This document shows, in pieces, positions 31,621 to 40,241 of a DNA stretch of 64,000 nucleotides. Every line of letters begins with the position of its first letter. The stretch's first letter is position 1. Source of the stretch: an uncultured Bacteroidales bacterium (GTDB lineage Bacteria; Bacteroidota; Bacteroidia; Bacteroidales; F082); the NCBI GenBank assembly GCA_947304185.1, contig CAMZAM010000004.1, positions 82,450 to 146,449 of the forward strand. Direction: 5' to 3'. Under the pieces are notes generated by a model. That model saw only the letters and a program-made list of their open reading frames with translations. It made no database searches and had not been told where the DNA came from. The position numbers and the translations under genes are program-made.

Positions 31621-32703
31621 ATGGAAAGTTTTAAAGTTGGTGATAGAGTTAACTTCTTGAACGACAAGGGTGGAGGAGTGATAAAAAAGATTATCGACAC
31701 TCGCATGGTGGAGGTTGAAATTGAAGACGGCTTTAACGTGCCGGTTTTGATGAGCGACTTGGTTTTGGATTTCCGCGCGCAGCCAACGAGGCAGCAGCAG
31801 ATGGTCGACAATGTGCGGAAAGAGATTAAGAATCAACAGATTATAGCAGAGGAGACTAAAAACGAAGCCCGCAGAAGTGAGTTGCGTCGTTTTGCGAGAA
31901 GCTCGGAAGAAGAAGGCATATATCTGGCGTTCATTCCGCACGATCAGCAGTGGTTGCTTACCGGTCCGATAGATGTGGCTGTCGTTAACAACACTCCGGC
32001 CGACGCTTTATACAGTTTTAATCTCAAAGATAGTGAAAAATACGCGAATATCGACTACGGAAGCATAGCTCCGTTCTCGAAAGTGGTAGTGGAAGCTATA
32101 TCTCGCGACGACATCGAGCATTGGTGTGATGGTGTGATCCAGGTGGTGCTTTGCCAGGACGACATCGACTCGGTGTATCATCCGCTGCATGCACCATTTT
32201 CGTTGAGAACCAGCAGGTTCTTCAAGGATGGAAGTTTCGTGGAATCAGGATTGCTGGGTGAGAAGGCGTTGATGATTTGTTTGTCGACATTAATGGCATT
32301 AAAAGGAAAGGAGACTGATTACACCAAGCTGATGAAAGACGGCGTGATGCAGCCGAAAGCTAACAAAGACATAGTGAAGAAGACTGCTGCCATCGACAAG
32401 CATCAGACCGAGCCAGGAGAGGCGATAGTTGACCTGCATATCGGCGAACTTGTCGACAACATCCTTGGGATGTCGAGCACGGACATCTTCAGAATGCAGA
32501 TTAACTATTTCAAGAAAATGCTTGACAGCGCTATAGAAAACGACTATTCAAAGGTGACGTTCATCCATGGTGTTGGCAACGGAGTCTTGAAAAATGCCAT
32601 CATAGAAGAACTGAAAAACTACGAGAATACATCCAACAGAATGGCCTCGATTTCAAGGTTTGGAGTGGGCGCCATAGACGTAATGATTAAAGATAAAAAG
32701 TAG
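31621..32703 (+). CDS. DUF2027 and Smr domain-containing protein
   Basis: A 360-residue cytoplasmic protein. It begins with a small Tudor/KOW-like domain ('FKVGDRVNFLNDKGGGVI', residues 4-60), continues with the DUF2027 beta domain (about 80-250), and ends in an Smr domain (about 270-355) with 'VDLHIGELVD' and 'FIHGVGNGVLKNAI'. The D-L-H and H-G-x-G motifs are those of the nicking endonuclease domain from MutS2; in Smr proteins it cleaves nucleic acid, notably mRNA at stalled ribosomes in some bacteria. The MutS ATPase is absent, as is normal for this Bacteroidetes family. Exact role unknown. Confidence 0.85.
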   Translation: MESFKVGDRVNFLNDKGGGVIKKIIDTRMVEVEIEDGFNVPVLMSDLVLDFRAQPTRQQQMVDNVRKEIKNQQIIAEETKNEARRSELRRFARSSEEEGIYLAFIPHDQQWLLTGPIDVAVVNNTPADALYSFNLKDSEKYANIDYGSIAPFSKVVVEAISRDDIEHWCDGVIQVVLCQDDIDSVYHPLHAPFSLRTSRFFKDGSFVESGLLGEKALMICLSTLMALKGKETDYTKLMKDGVMQPKANKDIVKKTAAIDKHQTEPGEAIVDLHIGELVDNILGMSSTDIFRMQINYFKKMLDSAIENDYSKVTFIHGVGNGVLKNAIIEELKNYENTSNRMASISRFGVGAIDVMIKDKK

Positions 32704-32760
32704 AGCGAAAACTTTTTACATTTTATTTATTAAATAAGTTGTTTGTTTGTAAAAAGTTAG

Positions 32761-32768
32761 TATTTTTG
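32761..32768 (+). promoter_or_regulatory. Promoter -7 box for the TIR-FGE operon
   Basis: TATTTTTG fits TAnnTTTG, 21 bases ahead of the ATG at 32790. TTTG occurs 11 and 15 bases upstream (32742-32749), not at the usual 19, so strength is uncertain. Confidence 0.5.
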
Positions 32769-32789
32769 CAAATTGAATAATTGTGCATT

Positions 32790-34331
32790 ATGAAAAAACT
32801 AATTCTATTATTAATCGCCGCATTGTTTGTCGTGAATGGCTATTGCAGTAACGATGAGGATAAGGAACAGCAGATTTACTATTATTATCTTCAGGGACAT
32901 AAGTCCGATAATGAGGAAAAGGAAAACTCATCGATAGGTGATGCATTGAGGTATTATTATTGGAGTCTGGTGCTCTGCTCGACACATCCTCAGGGTTCGA
33001 CTTTGATGTTCCAGGATCTGGATACCGGTGAAGATATAGTCATCAAGGAATGGCTCGGCAACAGGATTGACGATCTTTTGCAGAGGATTAAGTTCATCCC
33101 GAAGAAAAAGCCGGTCATGAAAAGCAAAAACAGTGTCGCATACGAGATGATTGTCACAGACGGAGCCGACAGGATACCGTGGCTTAAATTTGAATACAAC
33201 AACGGCAACGGTTATGTTGAGAGTTCGGTGGAAAGCGGTTTGGCTTCGATCGAGCTGATGGATAAGGACATCACCGATGTCGAAATCGTGGTGTGCATTG
33301 AGAATAAGGTTGACGCAGAGGCACGAGCCAAAGAGGTTTATGATGCTATGCAACAGCTCGGCGCACCTATCACTTTCACATCAGCAGTAAAGAAAGTCGA
33401 TGTAAAGAAAGTGCAAGACGAAGCGAGCGTTGGTGAGTATCACGACGACGCTATTCTTAACAAGAAAGCAGAAACCGACCGTCTTATTGAAGAGAGTCTG
33501 GCAAACAATATGGATGATTATCTTAAAGCTATGAAAGCTGTTGAAAAAGCTTTAAGAAACAAGGATGTGAGCGAGGCGAAGAACTATTTCACCCCTGATG
33601 GCTATGAGATGTTCGAGTCATTACTCAAAAACGGAAAATATTACATCTTGGGAACGCCGGAGTATAAGTTTGTCGAGATTAAGGATATGGTGATTTGCAG
33701 AAGTATCCCGATGCAGTTTAACTTTAAAAACAATGTCGGGTTTATCAGACACGTTGTATTCCGTTTCGACAAAGAATCGAGGAAGGTCAACTCGATAGCG
33801 TTCAAGCTCACTGATATGGCAGAGATTGATATTCTCGGTAAAGACCAATGGAATCCTGGTTCGAGAATGATTCTGATAAATTTCTTGGAGGATTATCAGA
33901 CAGCTTATGCCTTGAAACGTCTTGATTATCTTGATAAAATCTTCTCCGATGATGCTTTGATCATTGTGGGAACGGTGCTCAAACAGAAACAGAAGGGCGA
34001 TGTGATGCATCTGGCTACGGAGACCAAAGTGAAATATGATACTTTGAGCAAGGGTAAGTATATCGACAAACTGCACAATGTATTTACGAAAAACGAGTTC
34101 GTGAACATAAGATTTCTCGATACCGATTTCACTCAGCATAAATCGGGACTTGAACTTTATGGCATACAGGTCAAGCAGGAGTATCTGTCGAGTACATACG
34201 GCGATGTCGGCTATCTCTTCCTGATGGTTGATCTTCGTGAAGAGCTCCCTGTGATTCATGTAAGGACATGGGAACCTGAGAAAACAGAGAATCCAATTGG
34301 ATTTGATGATATAATTGTTGAAATAATTTAG
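32790..34331 (+). CDS. Secreted protein of unknown function, first gene of the TIR-FGE operon
   Basis: The start at 32790 gives a signal peptide (MKKLILLLIAALFVVNGYC); an upstream TTG adds only three residues. Mature length is about 495. An N-terminal helical part ('SIGDALRYYYWSLVL') is TPR-like; residues about 100-200 form a beta-rich segment; two related alpha+beta segments follow (about 250-345 and 350-515), each with a helix leading into a strand phrase such as 'AKNYFTPDGYEMF' and 'LDKIFSDDALIIVG', which looks NTF2-like. There are no recognisable catalytic residues. It is three bases ahead of the PEGA/BACON gene. Periplasmic by signal peptide; function unknown. Confidence 0.65.
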   Translation: MKKLILLLIAALFVVNGYCSNDEDKEQQIYYYYLQGHKSDNEEKENSSIGDALRYYYWSLVLCSTHPQGSTLMFQDLDTGEDIVIKEWLGNRIDDLLQRIKFIPKKKPVMKSKNSVAYEMIVTDGADRIPWLKFEYNNGNGYVESSVESGLASIELMDKDITDVEIVVCIENKVDAEARAKEVYDAMQQLGAPITFTSAVKKVDVKKVQDEASVGEYHDDAILNKKAETDRLIEESLANNMDDYLKAMKAVEKALRNKDVSEAKNYFTPDGYEMFESLLKNGKYYILGTPEYKFVEIKDMVICRSIPMQFNFKNNVGFIRHVVFRFDKESRKVNSIAFKLTDMAEIDILGKDQWNPGSRMILINFLEDYQTAYALKRLDYLDKIFSDDALIIVGTVLKQKQKGDVMHLATETKVKYDTLSKGKYIDKLHNVFTKNEFVNIRFLDTDFTQHKSGLELYGIQVKQEYLSSTYGDVGYLFLMVDLREELPVIHVRTWEPEKTENPIGFDDIIVEII

Positions 34332-34334
34332 CGA

Positions 34335-37061
34335 ATGAAAAGATTTTTACTGTTATTTCTGATATGCGTTTCAATATTGGTGAAAGCTCAGAATAACGAT
34401 TCGTTCTTGTGTGTTGACGAATTTCATATTCTTGGACCAGAGCATACCTTTATTCTTCCTGATGGTATGCGTAAGACCGACAATAATGGCAAGCCTTGGG
34501 CTATGGTCAAAATTGTGGCGAGCGGTTTCGACAGCAAGACACTCAACGACATCAGTTTTTACTCACCGAGTTCGACGCTGACGGTGGGAAATGCCAGTAT
34601 GGATATCAACGACGGCAGCTATAAGATTATAATGTCGTCGGGAGTCAAAGGAAAGCTGGTGTTTAAATACCAGGGCACTACATTGGAGTATCAGATACCA
34701 ATGCAGCTGGTTAAAAACCGTGTTTATGAACTCGTTCTTGCCATGCGTTCGGCCAACCTCACGATTGTGGCGACTCCGTCTGATGCGAAGATTTTCATCG
34801 ATGGAACGGAAGTGAGTGCTTCGGGCTACGCAAGCGTCAACCTGCCTTTGGGCGAACACACATATTCGGTTGAGTGTGAAAACCATCTCAACGAGAAAAA
34901 CAAGACTGTAAGATTAGAGAAAAACGAAAGGCTTGAAGTCAATTTGAGGCCTTTATTCGGTTATATATCAATCACTTCACAGCCTGCTGGAGCTGATGTT
35001 TATATCAATGGCACACGTGAGGGTACAACCCCATATCTCAACAAGAAAATCAATAGAGGTAAAAACAACGTGGTCCTTAAGAAAAACGGTTATTACGATT
35101 ATCCGGAGCTTGTTGATGTAGGCATGGGTGAGGAGAAGACGCTGGATGCGGTATTGGTGAGATACGGCGACTTGTCGTATAATATCGAAAATGCTATCAC
35201 AGCTGAGCTTACGTTATATCTGAGCCGCGACTCGTTGTATTTTGCTCCGACACAGACGACCGACTCAATATTAGTGACAACCAACAATATTGAATGGAAT
35301 TTTAAAGACGTTCCACGTTGGGTGAGTCTGTACAAACGTAGTAATGTCCTGTATATCACATGTTTGGAAAACAGGATGCATGAAGGCAGACAGGCAGATA
35401 TTACAGTGTTTACGGGCGATATAAGCACTACGCTTCATATTGTTCAGGAAGAGGGTAAGACCGTGCTGAAATCGGATTTCAACAGCATAGTGTTCGAAGC
35501 CGACAGAGACAGTGTGACAAGAAAAATCGAGACTAACGTGTCGGATTGGGAGATTACAACAAACATCGACTGGATTAATGCTTATGAGATGGGTAATTCA
35601 CTCGTGGTTGTCTGCGAAGAAAACACCATGCCGGTCTCACGACACGGAAACATCACCGTGCGGGCTTACGATCAGGAAAAGAGCTTTGCGGTGTCGCAGA
35701 AGTCACGTGTGACAAGATTTGTGATTCCGAAAGAAGATTATGTCATTGAGAAAGAAGGTGGCTCGATGGCGATTCCGGTAGGGCAGATCAAAGGCCCTTG
35801 GACATGTAGTTCCGACGAGGAATGGATGAAGGTGTCGCGCTCGGGCGATGTCGTCATTTTGGATTGTGAGAAAAATAATTCAAAAGATCGTCGCGGAAGT
35901 TTCATTGTGAATACCGAGACAAAATCTTTGAAACTCAACGTGTCGCAAAAAGGAGAATATTCTGAGAGTCAGGATGTGATTATCGACAGTAAGCCAACAT
36001 GGAGCCGATTGTATGTCGATGGCAAGGATGCGGGTCGCACTCCGTTGAGAGTAACTGCTGATGACTCGTTGCATATGGTAAGCCTTGGCCGTGAGACGAG
36101 AGGCATAGTGTACAACAAGGCTAGCGACAACTTGGTGTTTAACACAGGCTTACGTTATATTCAACTTACAGCATCGAGTAAGACCTTCGGTTTGAGAAGC
36201 GGTTTCATCGGTTCAAAACGCTGGGGCGGATATAATCATTTCCAGCTGAAGCTTAACAACTGGGATATTAAACCTTCTAATACTAATGGCCCGTTGTATA
36301 TCATGAGTGCTGGTCCTACGTTTGAAGTGTTGCCATGGATGTCGGTATATGCCGGTATCGGTGTTGGCGTCTCAAACGATACGTTGAGAGCAATACAGCA
36401 GGACTATCCTCAAGAATACAAACATTCTCCTAAAGAGATTAGCGTGGGATATGAGTTGGAGGCCGGTTTGATGTTCTATTACAAGAGCATCTTCGCGACA
36501 GGCGGTGTACAGGTGAACCACGTGGGAATACACGATAACGTTGACTTTTCGTTAGGTTTGGGAATGTACTTCAACAGATATTATGATCCGAAATTCGGCT
36601 ACTGCGCTACCAGAAGCCGTGAGTGGTGGTCGGTTAACTATCTATACAATCCGGGCCGAAACGGACACGGTTTGATGTTTAACGATGTCGGAAAACATGT
36701 AGTCCGCTGGTACATAAAAGCGATGGCAGAGTTTAACAAAGTCTACGATCCGGATCCTGATCCTGCAGCCACGGTGATAGAAAGAGTCGATGAGGTTGCT
36801 CCACTGCTGACTACAGGTGTCACGTTTAACCTGATGCCTGGATTTATCGACATGATGGTCGGAGCTGGCTATCAGGGAAGCGTGGTGTCAAAATCATATA
36901 TCGATAAAGGCTTGCAGGCTGAAGTCGGAGTTGTCATGAATATCTGGCGTATCCCGCTTACGATAATGATGCGTTGCAGCGAACTTGATAAAAAAACGCG
37001 TTATCTGACGGTTGATTTCGGCGTCGGCTTCAGCTTTGGTGATTTGTTTGCTAATAAATAA
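34335..37061 (+). CDS. PEGA and BACON domain protein with C-terminal barrel-like region
   Basis: A 908-residue exported protein. Signal peptide 1-19; an N-terminal beta domain to about 135; two PEGA domains at about 138-205 and 208-272 ('IVATPSDAKIFIDG', 'SITSQPAGADVYINGTREGT'); three BACON-like domains at about 292-371, 376-456 and 459-538, each with the phrase 'W....DW..' (for example 'VSDWEITTNIDWINAY'); a PEGA-like unit at about 545-590 ('SRLYVDGKDAGRTPL'); and from about 640 an aromatic-rich strand region ('GPLYIMSAGPTFEVLPWMSV', end 'DFGVGFSFGDLF') that resembles an outer-membrane barrel. BACON and PEGA domains commonly bind glycans or wall polymers. Linked by three and eight bases to neighbours. 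Confidence 0.75.
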   Translation: MKRFLLLFLICVSILVKAQNNDSFLCVDEFHILGPEHTFILPDGMRKTDNNGKPWAMVKIVASGFDSKTLNDISFYSPSSTLTVGNASMDINDGSYKIIMSSGVKGKLVFKYQGTTLEYQIPMQLVKNRVYELVLAMRSANLTIVATPSDAKIFIDGTEVSASGYASVNLPLGEHTYSVECENHLNEKNKTVRLEKNERLEVNLRPLFGYISITSQPAGADVYINGTREGTTPYLNKKINRGKNNVVLKKNGYYDYPELVDVGMGEEKTLDAVLVRYGDLSYNIENAITAELTLYLSRDSLYFAPTQTTDSILVTTNNIEWNFKDVPRWVSLYKRSNVLYITCLENRMHEGRQADITVFTGDISTTLHIVQEEGKTVLKSDFNSIVFEADRDSVTRKIETNVSDWEITTNIDWINAYEMGNSLVVVCEENTMPVSRHGNITVRAYDQEKSFAVSQKSRVTRFVIPKEDYVIEKEGGSMAIPVGQIKGPWTCSSDEEWMKVSRSGDVVILDCEKNNSKDRRGSFIVNTETKSLKLNVSQKGEYSESQDVIIDSKPTWSRLYVDGKDAGRTPLRVTADDSLHMVSLGRETRGIVYNKASDNLVFNTGLRYIQLTASSKTFGLRSGFIGSKRWGGYNHFQLKLNNWDIKPSNTNGPLYIMSAGPTFEVLPWMSVYAGIGVGVSNDTLRAIQQDYPQEYKHSPKEISVGYELEAGLMFYYKSIFATGGVQVNHVGIHDNVDFSLGLGMYFNRYYDPKFGYCATRSREWWSVNYLYNPGRNGHGLMFNDVGKHVVRWYIKAMAEFNKVYDPDPDPAATVIERVDEVAPLLTTGVTFNLMPGFIDMMVGAGYQGSVVSKSYIDKGLQAEVGVVMNIWRIPLTIMMRCSELDKKTRYLTVDFGVGFSFGDLFANK

Positions 37062-37069
37062 GACAGGTT

Positions 37070-38374
37070 ATGAAGTTTTTTAGATACATATTATGTTTGC
37101 TGATCATTATGCCATTGGCGATGACGGCGCAAAACAAGAAAAATCTCTCCAAACAATATGTTGGCAAGATTGATGTGGTTGATAGAACAGGTATTCAGAA
37201 TTTTTACGTTAAGCATGGCGAATTCAGACTTGATTTCGACACAAAGGTGACTGACGCGTATAACTATATGTATACCAAGAACTACAAGTATTTTGTCATC
37301 GTGAGAGATTCGAAAGACAATGTTATCAGTGCGAAGATGAATAATTACGAGCTGCCTTTTAAGAATATGAGCGGTGTGAAAATCTTAAAGGCCGGATATT
37401 CAGTTCCAGATTATATTTATGTTGAGAAACGTAACATAACCTACAAAGGAGAAGCGCAGTTTAAGTACTATCTACACGCTTTAGGCAGGTTGCTGGGGCC
37501 TTACGATGAGGTGCTCGACTTGTTCCCTGATGGGTTTATTTTCAGGTCTGGCAGTGTATACGGATATAGCACATATGATATTGACGATGTGAGCGATATC
37601 ACTTATCCTATTCCTACGGAGTCGCTATATGTTGAAAAGACTATCAAATGCAATTTGAGGAATTCGGTGCTTGAGTTCAAGCCTTCCGATGATGTGCGTT
37701 ATTACAGCACTTCCGATGGCCATTATTATTTGCTGTATTACGATAATTACATGGATAACACCCTTATGGTTGTCGATGGCACAGGATACGAGCTCGACGG
37801 TGCGATGGAGACCGTAGATTTCAAATACTCGCAGAATGGACAACATTGGATTGCGGCTTATTCAAACAATGTGATGGTCGACGGTGTCAGTATGATGCCG
37901 CTATCAGACAAAATCAAGCATATAGCGATAAAAAACAACGGCGATTATGCTTTTGTCGTTGAAGGTAAGGATAAAAACGACAAATTGTATTTCGGTGAGG
38001 ATATGATAATGCAAGGCGCAGATGTGAAATGGCTCGCTGTTGACTTCAATGAGCGCTTTAATTATATATGCCGGAACAAAAGAGGCTATTTCTATGGCAT
38101 CGATAATCAGCTTAGTGCGAAAAATGAGGATATGAAGAATTATTATTATCCGGCACTTTTCGACAGTGATGAGAAGTTCGTTGTGATGTCGAACGATGGC
38201 AAACATGTCATGGAATACAGCTACGACACACCATACATCGTTATTGACAACACGCGTATTGACGGGCCGTCGATTCCGCATTATGCCAAGTGGAATGAAA
38301 CCGAGAAAAGCTTCGTTTGGAATGCTGTTGAAGGTGTGAATCTTTATTTATACGAATACAAAGTGAAAGAATAA
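37070..38374 (+). CDS. Secreted beta-propeller-like protein
   Basis: A 434-residue protein with signal peptide (MKFFRYILCLLIIMPLAMTA). From about residue 150 it has repeated 40-50-residue strand blocks containing a Gly/Asp turn and an aromatic ('FKYSQNGQHWIAAYSNNVMV', 'IKNNGDYAFVVEG', 'FDSDEKFVVMSNDGKHVMEY'), which look like blades of a propeller. No metal or catalytic motif is evident. Its stop overlaps the start of the TIR gene (TAATG), so both are probably made in fixed ratio. The role is unknown; the same transcript suggests that it acts with the TIR-FGE protein in the envelope. Confidence 0.65.
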   Translation: MKFFRYILCLLIIMPLAMTAQNKKNLSKQYVGKIDVVDRTGIQNFYVKHGEFRLDFDTKVTDAYNYMYTKNYKYFVIVRDSKDNVISAKMNNYELPFKNMSGVKILKAGYSVPDYIYVEKRNITYKGEAQFKYYLHALGRLLGPYDEVLDLFPDGFIFRSGSVYGYSTYDIDDVSDITYPIPTESLYVEKTIKCNLRNSVLEFKPSDDVRYYSTSDGHYYLLYYDNYMDNTLMVVDGTGYELDGAMETVDFKYSQNGQHWIAAYSNNVMVDGVSMMPLSDKIKHIAIKNNGDYAFVVEGKDKNDKLYFGEDMIMQGADVKWLAVDFNERFNYICRNKRGYFYGIDNQLSAKNEDMKNYYYPALFDSDEKFVVMSNDGKHVMEYSYDTPYIVIDNTRIDGPSIPHYAKWNETEKSFVWNAVEGVNLYLYEYKVKE

Positions 38375-39759
38375 TGCAATACGACGTATTTATAAGCTAT
38401 TCCCGTAGGGATTATCTGGATGAGAACGGAGATGTTATCCCTGGTAACATTGTTTCCAAAATCAAGGATGTGCTGAAGAAAAACGGCATCAGCTATTGGT
38501 TCGACGAAGATGGTATCAATTCTGGAGACGAGTTTGCACGGCTTATCATAAGAAGCATCAAAGATTCGAAGGTGTTACTGTTTGTGTCGACAGAGAACTC
38601 GAACAATTCGTCATGGACGCGCAAGGAGATAGCTTCGGCAATATCTTACAAAAAGAAGATTATACCGTTTAAATACGACGACACTCCGTTTAACGATTCG
38701 TTATTGCTTTATCTTGCCGATTTGGATTTCATTTCCTATAAACAACAAGGAAGCAGGGCACTTAATAGACTCGTTACGAGTATTTCCAATTATCTTGACT
38801 CTATTAAACCTGTTGAGCCTGCGGAGATAGCCGAAGTTGAGACAAAACCGGAACCAAAACCTAACCCTAAGAAACAAGAACCTGTCGCGAAAGCTCCGAA
38901 GGGTAAGTCGAAGACAGGGAAGGTGTTGCTGATAACGCTGTTATCGATAGCGTTGATTGGAGCTGCGGTTATTGCCTTTAAGGGCATTAACTCAAAACAG
39001 CAGGGCGGCGAGGGCGTCGCTGAAGATATAGTCGCCACTGAAGTAAAGACAGAGCAAAAGATTGAACCTGCTGTGCCCCAAAAAACAGAGGTTAAGTCGG
39101 AAGGAAAGACCACAACATCTGTTCAGCAAGAAGCCAAGCCTGTTGAGAAAAAGGAGTTGAAAGACGCCACCATCAGTGTCAATGGTGTGAAGTTTGATAT
39201 GATTGCAGTGAAAGGCAATGGTAAGATCGGCGATTTCTGTATCGGAAAATTTGAGGTAACACAGAAGCTTTGGAAGGCTGTGATGGGAATGTCGGTCAAA
39301 CAACAGCGCGACCTCCTGGATTCGTCGTTCAAGCTGAGAGGAGAAGACGACGATATGCCTATATATTTCGTCAGTTGGGATGATTGCCAGAAGTTTATCA
39401 AGAAACTTAACGCAATGACAGGCAAGAAGTTCCGTCTGCCCACTGAGGCTGAATGGGAATATGCCGCTAAGGGTGGTCAGAAGTCGAAAGGCAAGCTTTA
39501 CGGTGACAGTGATGACGCTTCGAGTTACGGATGGTATGAAGATAACAGTGGCGGAACAACACATGTCGCAGGTACTAAGAATCCAAATGTCTTGGGATTG
39601 TACGACATGGTTGGAAATGTCAGTGAGTGGTGCCAGAATTGTGTGGTGAAAGGTGGCAGTTGGGCTAACACTGCCGACCACTGCAAGGTCACAAGCCGTA
39701 ATGCGGTTGACTCTTTCATTCGCACTGATGACACTGGGTTCAGACTTGTGATGGATTAA
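38374..39759 (+). CDS. TIR domain - transmembrane helix - FGE/SUMF-like domain protein
   Basis: A 461-residue protein with three parts. Residues 1 to about 140 are a TIR domain: 'YDVFISYSRRD', 'WFDEDGINSGDEF', and 'SSWTRKEIASAI'. Glu85 in the last phrase lines up by eye with the catalytic Glu of SARM1 ('DWVHKEI'), so NADase activity is possible. Then comes a Pro/Lys/Glu linker, a single hydrophobic helix (about 184-203), and a C-terminal FGE-sulfatase domain (about 265-461) with 'FRLPTEAEWEYAAKGG', 'GLYDMVGNVSEW', 'KGGSW', 'DTGFRLV'. Of the two catalytic FGE cysteines, one position appears to be Asn, so formylglycine formation is doubtful and a ligand-binding role is more likely. The TIR should be cytoplasmic and the FGE periplasmic. 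Last gene of the operon. Confidence 0.82.
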   Translation: MQYDVFISYSRRDYLDENGDVIPGNIVSKIKDVLKKNGISYWFDEDGINSGDEFARLIIRSIKDSKVLLFVSTENSNNSSWTRKEIASAISYKKKIIPFKYDDTPFNDSLLLYLADLDFISYKQQGSRALNRLVTSISNYLDSIKPVEPAEIAEVETKPEPKPNPKKQEPVAKAPKGKSKTGKVLLITLLSIALIGAAVIAFKGINSKQQGGEGVAEDIVATEVKTEQKIEPAVPQKTEVKSEGKTTTSVQQEAKPVEKKELKDATISVNGVKFDMIAVKGNGKIGDFCIGKFEVTQKLWKAVMGMSVKQQRDLLDSSFKLRGEDDDMPIYFVSWDDCQKFIKKLNAMTGKKFRLPTEAEWEYAAKGGQKSKGKLYGDSDDASSYGWYEDNSGGTTHVAGTKNPNVLGLYDMVGNVSEWCQNCVVKGGSWANTADHCKVTSRNAVDSFIRTDDTGFRLVMD

Positions 39760-39766
39760 ATAAAAG

Positions 39767-39838
39767 TGACCCCGCCGGGATTCGAACCCGGACCGAAGGA
39801 ACCGGAATCCTTAATTCTATCCATTAGACTACGGGGCC
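39767..39838 (-). tRNA. tRNA-Arg (anticodon CCG)
   Basis: Cloverleaf reads on the minus strand: acceptor GGCCCCG with CGGGGTC plus discriminator A, anticodon stem AAGGA/TCCTT with loop TTCCGGT, and T-loop GGTTCGAATCC. The CCA end is not encoded. It is five bases downstream of the ssrA 3' end, so both may be cut from one precursor. It lies seven bases from the stop of the TIR-FGE gene. Confidence 0.95.
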
Positions 39839-39843
39839 ATCTG

Positions 39844-40241
39844 TGGAGCTGGAGGGAGTCGAACCCTCGTCCAAACAAGGAACAATTATGCTTTCTACAT
39901 ACTTATTCTGTTGTTGGTTTTCGAGCTGTGCAAGGAAACAGACATCCTAATCGCAACCTTATCTCCTTGAGTTTCACGACGTTGCCGGAGCTTCCGCGTC
40001 GCTATCCCGAAATTGCTGAGCACCTCGTTGCCGGACCGGAATCGGGAGTCTCCATCCGCGAGATGTCTCGTCCTCTCACCTTGTGAAAGGATGAAGCTTT
40101 AATCTACTATACTTCGATTAAGCAGCGAGAGCGTAAGTATTTTCGCCAATTAATTTTTTGCAGTCAAGATTTACGAGCGTCACTGCGAGGCTCGGTATGC
40201 TTACATAACCCTTCTACAAGCTGTCAAAACCGGTCAGCCCC
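39844..40241 (-). ncRNA. ssrA: tmRNA (transfer-messenger RNA)
   Basis: About 398 bases on the minus strand. The 5' end GGGGCTGACCGGTTTTGACA is the conserved tmRNA start; the 3' end carries a T-arm (GGTTCGACTCC) and CAGCTCC that pairs with GGGGCTG, with discriminator A and no encoded CCA. The tag reading frame is 40147 down to 40118: GENTYALAA then TAA, close to the GENNYALAA and GETNYALAA tags of relatives. It frees stalled ribosomes with SmpB and marks the peptide for degradation. Confidence 0.97.

What the first reader, a model, noticed from the sequence alone, without database searches (positions are those of the whole stretch)
32790..39759. Four-gene envelope operon ending in a TIR-TM-FGE protein: candidate undescribed sensing or defence system
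Seen: four genes in one direction with gaps of 3 and 8 bases and one TAATG overlap; three have signal peptides (unknown protein, PEGA/BACON/barrel-like protein, propeller-like protein) and the fourth carries an N-terminal TIR domain, one membrane helix and an FGE-like domain. Known: TIR domains in bacterial defence are often NADases or signal enzymes; PEGA and BACON domains tend to bind glycans or wall polymers; the FGE fold can be a catalyst or a ligand binder. Inference: the exported proteins and the periplasmic FGE domain sense an outer-membrane or surface event, such as phage adsorption, a toxin or envelope damage, and the TIR acts in the cytoplasm. I cannot rule out a housekeeping envelope role.
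Basis: partly seen in the sequence, partly recalled or inferred. Interest (0 to 1): 0.78.

Follow-up and report, generated by a model that had tools for sequence, protein, structure and literature searches.

The report
Envelope-spanning TIR receptor operon
A bacterium whose close relatives are Bacteroidales carries four adjacent genes, three for exported proteins and one for a membrane-anchored TIR protein, and related species carry or lack a shorter three-gene form as one block; together they likely form a sensor that would carry news of trouble at the cell surface to a predicted NAD-cutting switch inside.

Summary
In detail: four co-directional genes (32790-39759) encode three exported proteins and a TIR-TM-FGE protein. 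The barrel half of gene B and gene C (propeller-like) occur in the same 18 of 99 genus genomes, always adjacent; across the order C was found in 1 of 393 (this one). A TIR gene adjoins them in 16 of 18, and in a 17th judging from contig ends. Two layouts exist: type I (here and G011) A-B-C-TIR-TM-FGE; type II (15 genomes) TIR-TM, BACON-barrel, C. At the type II site 17 of 19 readable non-carriers have the flanking genes directly adjacent, so the block comes and goes as a unit. The TIR glutamate is invariant in 26 aligned relatives. Best reading: an outer-membrane barrel plus exported binders sense an envelope event, and a single-pass TIR receptor turns it into an NAD-derived signal. Sensing, NADase activity and defence are untested. 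Against: G035 has A-B-C without D, gene A is a wider envelope family, type II lacks A and FGE, and no known defence system was identified around the operon (truncated listing). In G011 a channel gene with a RyR-like motif precedes the operon: an optional candidate effector.

The parts
32790..34331 (+). gene A: exported 513-aa protein, C-terminal NTF2-like domain (about 350-501), perhaps a second one before it (from the helix and strand order only)
34335..37061 (+). gene B: exported protein with N domain, PEGA repeats, three BACON domains, predicted outer-membrane beta-barrel (about 601-908)
   Evidence: Pfam PEGA and BACON above cut-off, OMP_b-brl E 0.07 below cut-off; region 601-908 found in 18 of 99 genus genomes
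37070..38374 (+). gene C: exported all-beta, propeller-like protein
38374..39759 (+). gene D: TIR (1-140) - lysine-rich linker - one TM helix (about 180-207) - FGE-like domain (about 271-461), inferred to lie in the periplasm
   Evidence: Pfam, hydropathy, Glu85 and Trp81 invariant in 26 aligned sequences, closest solved structure by sequence TvpA 2y3c E 1.2e-27
38614..38628 (+). codons for W81-T-R-K-E85, the conserved TIR Trp and putative catalytic Glu
   Evidence: alignment A3; coordinates checked
31621..32703 (+). left flank: DUF2027/Smr protein, conserved anchor of the site, not part of the system
   Evidence: Pfam; found in 91 of 99 genus genomes
39766..40241 (-). right flank: tRNA-Arg and tmRNA, anchor of the site, not part of the system
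   Evidence: ARAGORN

Best explanation
The genes at 32790-39759 encode three exported proteins and a single-pass membrane protein with an N-terminal TIR domain, and they likely work as one envelope-spanning receptor in which a predicted outer-membrane barrel (B), a propeller-like protein (C) and a predicted NTF2-like protein (A) would pass an outer-membrane or cell-wall event to the FGE-like domain of D, predicted to face the periplasm, whose TIR would then cut NAD. Shown: gene order, signal and TM segments, domain matches, co-occurrence and adjacency of barrel, C and TIR, block-wise presence or absence at the type II site, invariance of the TIR Trp and Glu in the aligned relatives. Inferred: that B sits in the outer membrane, that A, B and C contact D, that contact makes the TIRs oligomerise, that NAD is cleaved to a messenger or depleted, and that the stimulus is phage adsorption, a toxin or wall damage. 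The FGE domain is read as a ligand binder rather than an enzyme. In type II its place is taken by another region (helical by my reading of the sequence) while barrel, C and TIR stay, so the TIR's outside part looks like the exchangeable adaptor and barrel-C like the constant sensor.
For: Barrel and C are in the same 18 of 99 genus genomes and adjacent in all 18; a TIR gene adjoins in 16 of 18, and in a 17th (G008) the TIR gene is followed, at a contig end, by the start of a barrel-type gene whose rest begins another contig. In 14 complete type II operons the TIR-B gap is -59 to 23 bases and the B-C gap 0 to 14, with starts as my ORF caller set them. Three type II C proteins are 21-24% identical to C and the 15 type II barrels 36-41% to that of B, so the link is old. 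Type II block absent as a unit: flanks directly adjacent in 17 of 19 readable non-carriers, of 20 fetched. Glu85 and Trp81 invariant in the 26 D-like proteins aligned, of 120 listed; W-V-R-[RH]-E-I in 14 of 14 complete type II operons and in G008. Single TM after a lysine-rich stretch in D and in type II TIRs. FGE domain closest in the PDB, by sequence, to TvpA rather than to the enzyme.
Against: G035 (76% complete) has A-B-C then the tmRNA, no D there, and its only TIR_2 hit is elsewhere. D-like TIR-TM-FGE exists with no A, B or C in the 16 kb fetched around it in G031 (L130). A occurs widely without a TIR (0 of 18 A-paralog loci have one within 6 kb). Barrel match is below Pfam cut-off. C matches propellers only over part of the chain. 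No contact between the proteins was modelled. No NADase assay. No known defence system identified around the operon (truncated listing). The fixed type II site speaks for vertical inheritance with loss as much as for mobile defence.
Confidence: 0.45

Rival explanations
1. A housekeeping or colonisation envelope module (glycan or wall binding) in which the TIR is only a scaffold that tethers the complex, with no NAD chemistry and no defence role.
For: A belongs to a broad family that sits within 5 kb of PEGA or FGE genes in 12 of 18 loci fetched for A alone (16 of 22 if four loci fetched for an FGE or a channel hit are counted) against 0 of 27 smr-anchored loci; A-B-C without D in G035; type II at one fixed chromosomal site.
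Against: Not found in 39 of the 46 good genus genomes, with clean empty sites; putative catalytic Glu and Trp invariant, which scaffold-only TIRs need not keep.
Confidence: 0.25
2. The TIR messenger opens a partner ion channel: the 2-TM, RCK-like channel with a C-terminal RyR-like domain encoded just before A in G011 is the effector, and in this genome a RyR-like gene elsewhere does that job.
For: G011 has the 676-aa channel gene ending 5 bases before A; G152 keeps the channel (80% identical) at the same site without A-D; channel-anchored loci have a TIR gene within 6 kb in 11 of 32, against 0 of 28 and 0 of 18 control loci (Fisher about 2e-5); EHxRW invariant in the 20 RyR-like segments aligned, of 22 found, with the spacing of H75 and W78 of the ADPR-signal-binding RyDEP (PMC13232231, sections 4 and 5 read); own genome has a RyR-like gene one gene away from a TIR-TM gene (L132).
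Against: No channel in this operon, none in the fetched stretch of G035 and none in the fetched stretches of the 15 type II loci; RyR label is below Pfam cut-off (2 of 20 at E<=1, best 0.055; one 0.79 match elsewhere in a relative) and has only chance-level PDB hits; the segments were chosen by likeness to one another, so the motif is partly given. Controls are housekeeping or envelope anchors, smr loci offer less flank (mean 6.5 kb against 10.1 kb) and two smr sites were fetched twice, so the excess may only mean shared conflict islands.
Confidence: 0.2
3. A stable envelope trio (A-B-C) to which TIR-TM-FGE was added by chance; the genes are neighbours but not partners.
For: G035 trio without D; TIR-TM-FGE without the trio in G031.
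Against: TIR adjacent in 16 (probably 17) of 18 with two different outside regions and two gene orders.
Confidence: 0.07
4. A type IX secretion or gliding accessory: the FGE domain acts like PorK/GldK under the outer membrane.
For: Best NCBIfam hit of D is GldK, E 3.5e-16.
Against: 59.5 bits against a cut-off of 350; PDB match to PorK weaker (8e-9) than to TvpA (1e-27); no FGE match in the type II TIR protein scanned with Pfam.
Confidence: 0.03

Closest known systems
Thoeris (TIR ThsB plus effector)
   Same: TIR with conserved Glu, expected NAD-derived signal
   Different: No Thoeris effector match among A, B and C in PADLOC; TIR is membrane-anchored with an outside domain; partners are exported
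FGS/CLec-bearing conflict systems (eLife 2020 PMC7159879; PNAS 2024 PMC10907252; passages read)
   Same: FGE-type C-lectin fold at the C-terminus as presumed sensor, TIR among partner domains; PEGA in membrane-near iSTAND systems
   Different: None of the four proteins has a MoxR, vWA or STAND match in Pfam; exported partners instead
Zorya (PMC11890865, passages read)
   Same: Works alike in outline: an envelope-contacting part is thought to sense infection and lead to a cytoplasmic effector
   Different: No match to motor proteins here; single-pass TIR instead; not a member
Animal Toll-like receptors (recalled)
   Same: Ligand-binding part outside, one TM helix, TIR inside
   Different: TIR is N-terminal, no LRR match, extra exported partners; analogy only
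TvpA of Treponema denticola, 2y3c
   Same: Nearest solved relative, by sequence, of the FGE-like domain
   Different: Listed as a 294-residue variable protein; only the FGE-like domain of D aligns with it
RyDEP phage RyR-domain proteins (PMC13232231, abstract, passages and sections 4 and 5 read)
   Same: His-x-x-Trp of the ligand pocket matches EHxRW of the channel in G011
   Different: Phage anti-Thoeris proteins; the channel is not in this window

Membership tests
TIR domain (Pfam PF13676) | profile match above curated cut-off | tested here: met
   63.4 bits against 28
catalytic TIR (NADase) | conserved Glu after Trp in the W-x-x-x-E stretch | tested here: met
   W81 and E85 invariant in 26 aligned sequences; that this Glu is the catalytic one is recalled
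catalytic TIR (NADase) | NAD cleavage | not testable with these tools
   needs enzyme assay
Thoeris | adjacent ThsA-type effector | tested here: not met
   among A-D PADLOC gives Thoeris models only for the TIR of D, weak ThsB ones; listing for the wider window truncated at 25 of 35 families
formylglycine-generating enzyme | catalytic Cys pair in the last segment | tested here: not met
   D has one Cys from GG-x-W to its end, and so have 19 of the 26 sequences of A3 (the other 7 have 2 or 3); none is invariant; position of the pair is recalled
FGE-sulfatase fold family (PF03781) | profile match above cut-off | tested here: met
   112.2 bits against 23.3
VMAP or iSTAND ternary conflict system | MoxR, vWA and STAND components in the operon | tested here: not met
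   no such Pfam match in A-D
Zorya | ZorA and ZorB motor proteins | tested here: not met
   no PADLOC hit in A, B, C other than one PDC-M52B at E 0.03 in B, and only TIR-type hits in D
outer-membrane beta-barrel protein (B) | profile match above cut-off | tested here: inconclusive
   OMP_b-brl 13.7 bits against 28.7
beta-propeller (C) | closed propeller fold | tested here: inconclusive
   top matches are mostly propellers, but over a part only, TM about 0.2-0.3
NTF2-like (A, C-terminal domain) | fold match of the predicted model | tested here: met
RyR domain PF02026 (channel next to the operon in G011) | profile match above cut-off | tested here: not met
   2 of 20 segments at E<=1, best 0.055
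known anti-phage system | loss of phage resistance on deletion | not testable with these tools
   needs phage challenge

The most novel reading that the evidence does not exclude
A bacterial counterpart of a Toll-like receptor: an outer-membrane barrel and propeller feel phage or toxin contact at the surface, a single-pass receptor with exchangeable periplasmic domain relays it, and its TIR makes an ADP-ribose messenger that in some relatives opens a ryanodine-receptor-like channel, killing or arresting the cell before the phage genome arrives.
Probability: 0.2. Interest if true: 0.88.

Novelty: new variant of a known kind. Interest (0 to 1): 0.66.

Why it matters
How bacterial TIR systems could notice an attack at the cell surface, before anything enters the cytoplasm, is to my knowledge largely open. 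A small cassette that joins a predicted outer-membrane protein to a membrane-anchored TIR, and that is present or absent as a block between close relatives at one clean site, makes that question testable with a handful of genes. If true it would also give a prokaryotic parallel to receptor-type TIR signalling.

Tried and rejected
Rejected: (1) that D was merely off-contig in G035: the contig runs on from C into the tmRNA, so the trio stands without D. (2) Defence-island reading of the window: 54 of 56 window ORFs against PADLOC gave strong hits that I read as generic models (ABC, sigma-54 activator); only 25 of 35 families were printed and hits are not tied to genes, so this is not a clean negative. 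(3) Obligate four-gene unit: A is in 31 of 119 family genomes, and 0 of 18 A-paralog loci have a TIR within 6 kb. (4) RyR by profile: no Pfam cut-off hit; nothing in the PDB with the one sequence and only chance-level hits with the profile; kept as motif-level likeness. (5) PDB sequence matches for A and C (profiles, E<=1) and B (E<=0.01): none. (6) C outside the genus: 1 of 393 order genomes, own only (as a rule 4 candidates scored per genome, and a few genus members are among the 393, so misses are possible). (7) Equal longest-contig lengths in the A, C and D homologue lists (A and D share 8, C and D 3, A and C 3, numbers copied by hand, the own cluster's 7260 included) hint at more A-C-D contigs but show no context. 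(8) Literature: ten searches of the open-licence PMC library listed no paper that I could recognise as describing a TIR with BACON-barrel and propeller partners; most papers were seen only as search listings. (9) My first count of PEGA/FGE genes beside A (16 of 22) included four loci fetched for other reasons; without them it is 12 of 18 (Fisher 1.2e-6 against 0 of 25 distinct smr sites). The barrel search also gave two weak second hits in G016 (E 1.4e-5 and 8e-4), not followed.

Labels from recall: MT (386 aa) and BCAT (341 aa) for the type II flanks, position of the FGE catalytic cysteines, Toll-like receptor layout, roles of Bd1075 and Csd6, and the reading of the channel as RCK/TrkA-like (Slo-like_RCK below cut-off in relatives).
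Full report
Observation. Four genes on the + strand, A 32790-34331, B 34335-37061, C 37070-38374 and D 38374-39759, lie 3 and 8 bases apart and then overlap by one base. A, B and C begin with one hydrophobic segment each, D has none there but one internal TM helix. Pfam sees PEGA and BACON domains in B, TIR_2 and FGE-sulfatase in D, nothing in A and nothing above cut-off in C. They sit between a DUF2027/Smr gene and a tRNA-Arg/tmRNA pair.

What stays together. With a profile of C (alignment A1, 24 rows) C is found in 18 of 99 genus genomes, 7 of 46 among the good ones, and in 1 of 393 genomes drawn across the order, this one. The barrel half of B (residues 601-908) is found in 18 of 99, the same 18 genomes. 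In all 18 the two genes adjoin. A TIR gene adjoins them in 16 of 18: D in G000 and G011, and a 314-328 aa TIR-TM protein in 14 others. In a 17th, G008, the contig with barrel and C starts inside the barrel gene, and another contig ends with a type II TIR gene followed by the start of a barrel-type gene. The exception is G035 (76% complete), where A, B and C are followed by the tmRNA (96.9% over 388 bases) and the only TIR_2 hit of the genome is elsewhere.

Two layouts. Type I (G000, G011) is A-B-C-D, with TIR and FGE at the two ends of D. Type II (15 genomes) is TIR-TM-other region (helical by my reading), then a BACON-barrel protein without a PEGA match, then C. Gene order differs (TIR last or first), three type II C proteins are 21-24% identical to C and the barrels 36-41% to that of B. 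In 14 complete type II operons gaps are -59 to 23 and 0 to 14 bases (the -59 depends on the start my ORF caller chose). That the same three parts persist across this distance and in both orders is the strongest sign of a shared function.

Gain and loss as a block. In the 15 type II carriers the block follows a 386-aa gene (MT, my label); the next gene after C is a 341-aa gene (BCAT, my label) in 12 of 15, another gene in 2 (G018, G139) and a contig end in 1 (G029). I fetched the site in 20 non-carriers chosen among those with close MT genes (82-88% identical): one was cut by the contig end, and in 17 of the other 19 MT and BCAT lie side by side, at most 115 bases apart; two hold one other gene there. 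So the three genes come or go together at one clean site. For type I the interval from smr to tmRNA holds A-B-C-D (G000), A-B-C (G035), or the channel alone (G152). In G011 the tRNA-Arg and tmRNA follow smr, and channel-A-B-C-D lies between the tmRNA and the regulator gene. No gene of the system lies between smr and the regulator gene in G026, G160, G017 and G199, and other genes follow smr in G197, G137 and G172. In at least three of the 20 stretches fetched (G100, G073, G148) smr is turned round, and rearrangements are common there.

A wider envelope family. A has 31 carriers in 119 family genomes, mostly as longer proteins of about 600-710 aa, and at least 2465 relatives at E<=1e-3 among 7997 candidates scored. 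PEGA or FGE genes lie within 5 kb in 12 of 18 loci fetched for A alone (16 of 22 with four loci fetched for other reasons), against 0 of 27 smr-anchored loci (Fisher 1.2e-6 on 25 distinct smr sites). Apart from the D of G011, the FGE domain of D is nearest to FGE parts of other long proteins, some of which carry PEGA domains. I infer that type I combined an existing A/PEGA/FGE envelope module with the TIR-barrel-C core.

A possible effector. In G011 a 676-aa gene ends 5 bases before A: two strong TM segments near its start, a nucleotide-binding-like part and a C-terminal RyR-like domain, by my reading. The labels are weak: Slo-like_RCK matches only in relatives and below cut-off, RyR in 2 of 20 segments at E up to 1, nothing in the PDB with the sequence and only chance-level hits with the profile. 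But E-H-x-R-W is invariant in the 20 segments aligned, of 22 found, and in the phage protein RyDEP H75 and W78, the same spacing, contact an ADP-ribose immune signal (PMC13232231, sections 4 and 5 read). Channel-anchored loci have a TIR gene within 6 kb in 11 of 32, within 2 kb in 7 of 32; control loci have 0 of 28 and 0 of 18. The controls are housekeeping or envelope anchors, smr loci offer less flank (6.5 kb on average against 10.1) and two smr sites were fetched twice, so this may reflect common islands. No channel lies in the operon, in the fetched stretches of the 15 type II loci or in that of G035, so it is optional at best.

Mechanism. I commit to an envelope-spanning TIR receptor: barrel and C sense, A and PEGA/BACON domains hold or read the wall, the outside domain of the TIR protein relays, and TIR oligomers cut NAD. 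The sequence facts above are shown; location, contact, activity, stimulus and purpose are inferred. Defence against phages is the purpose I think most likely, because bacterial TIRs of the catalytic type often serve it (recalled) and because the block is dispensable and patchy, but a stress response without phages fits the data as well.

Known systems. It is not Thoeris by partner genes, not a VMAP or iSTAND ternary system, not Zorya by partner genes, and not an FGE enzyme by the residues I could check. It works in outline like Zorya (envelope contact to effector; PMC11890865, passages read) and is laid out like a receptor TIR protein. The conflict-system papers with FGE-type sensors (PMC7159879, PMC10907252; passages read) are the nearest printed relatives that I saw. 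Ten searches of the open-licence library listed no paper that I recognised as describing this combination; subscription papers are not covered.

Noticed in passing
L182:6439-10359 (G025:C56): 1306-aa protein that joins the RyR-like channel to FGE-type domains (Pfam counts two stretches), 1.9 kb from a TIR gene: channel and FGE domain in one chain.
   Followed up: partly
L188:3-8951 (G153:C34): Channel, TIR-TM protein with a weak Lcl_C match (below cut-off) in its outside part, and PEGA protein in a row, with an A homologue nearby on the other strand: a third layout of the same theme.
   Followed up: partly
L132:4139-7344 (own genome, G000:C1): RyR-like gene, four-TM gene and TIR-TM gene in a row in the window's own genome; further TIR matches lie on the same contig at about 57-65 kb.
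   Followed up: partly
window 31621-40241: The Smr to tRNA-Arg/tmRNA interval is a variable site in the genus: without genes of this system, filled with different cargo, or rearranged, with the Smr gene turned round in at least three fetched genomes.
   Followed up: partly
window 39759-39766: D ends 6 bases before the opposite-strand tRNA-Arg, leaving no room for a terminator between them.
   Followed up: no
window 39766-40086: 106-aa ORF listed here is antisense to tRNA-Arg and tmRNA, so hardly a gene.
   Followed up: partly
G004:C60 and G210:C14, type II flank: The MT gene next to the type II block has an internal stop in these two genomes, as in six non-carriers; decay or sequencing error.
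   Followed up: no
window 32790-34331 and L111, L112, L114, L117: Gene A family: no Pfam match in the two members scanned, at least 2465 relatives, often with an extra N-terminal stretch of roughly 110 aa, commonly beside PEGA or FGE genes; an unannotated envelope family worth naming.
   Followed up: partly
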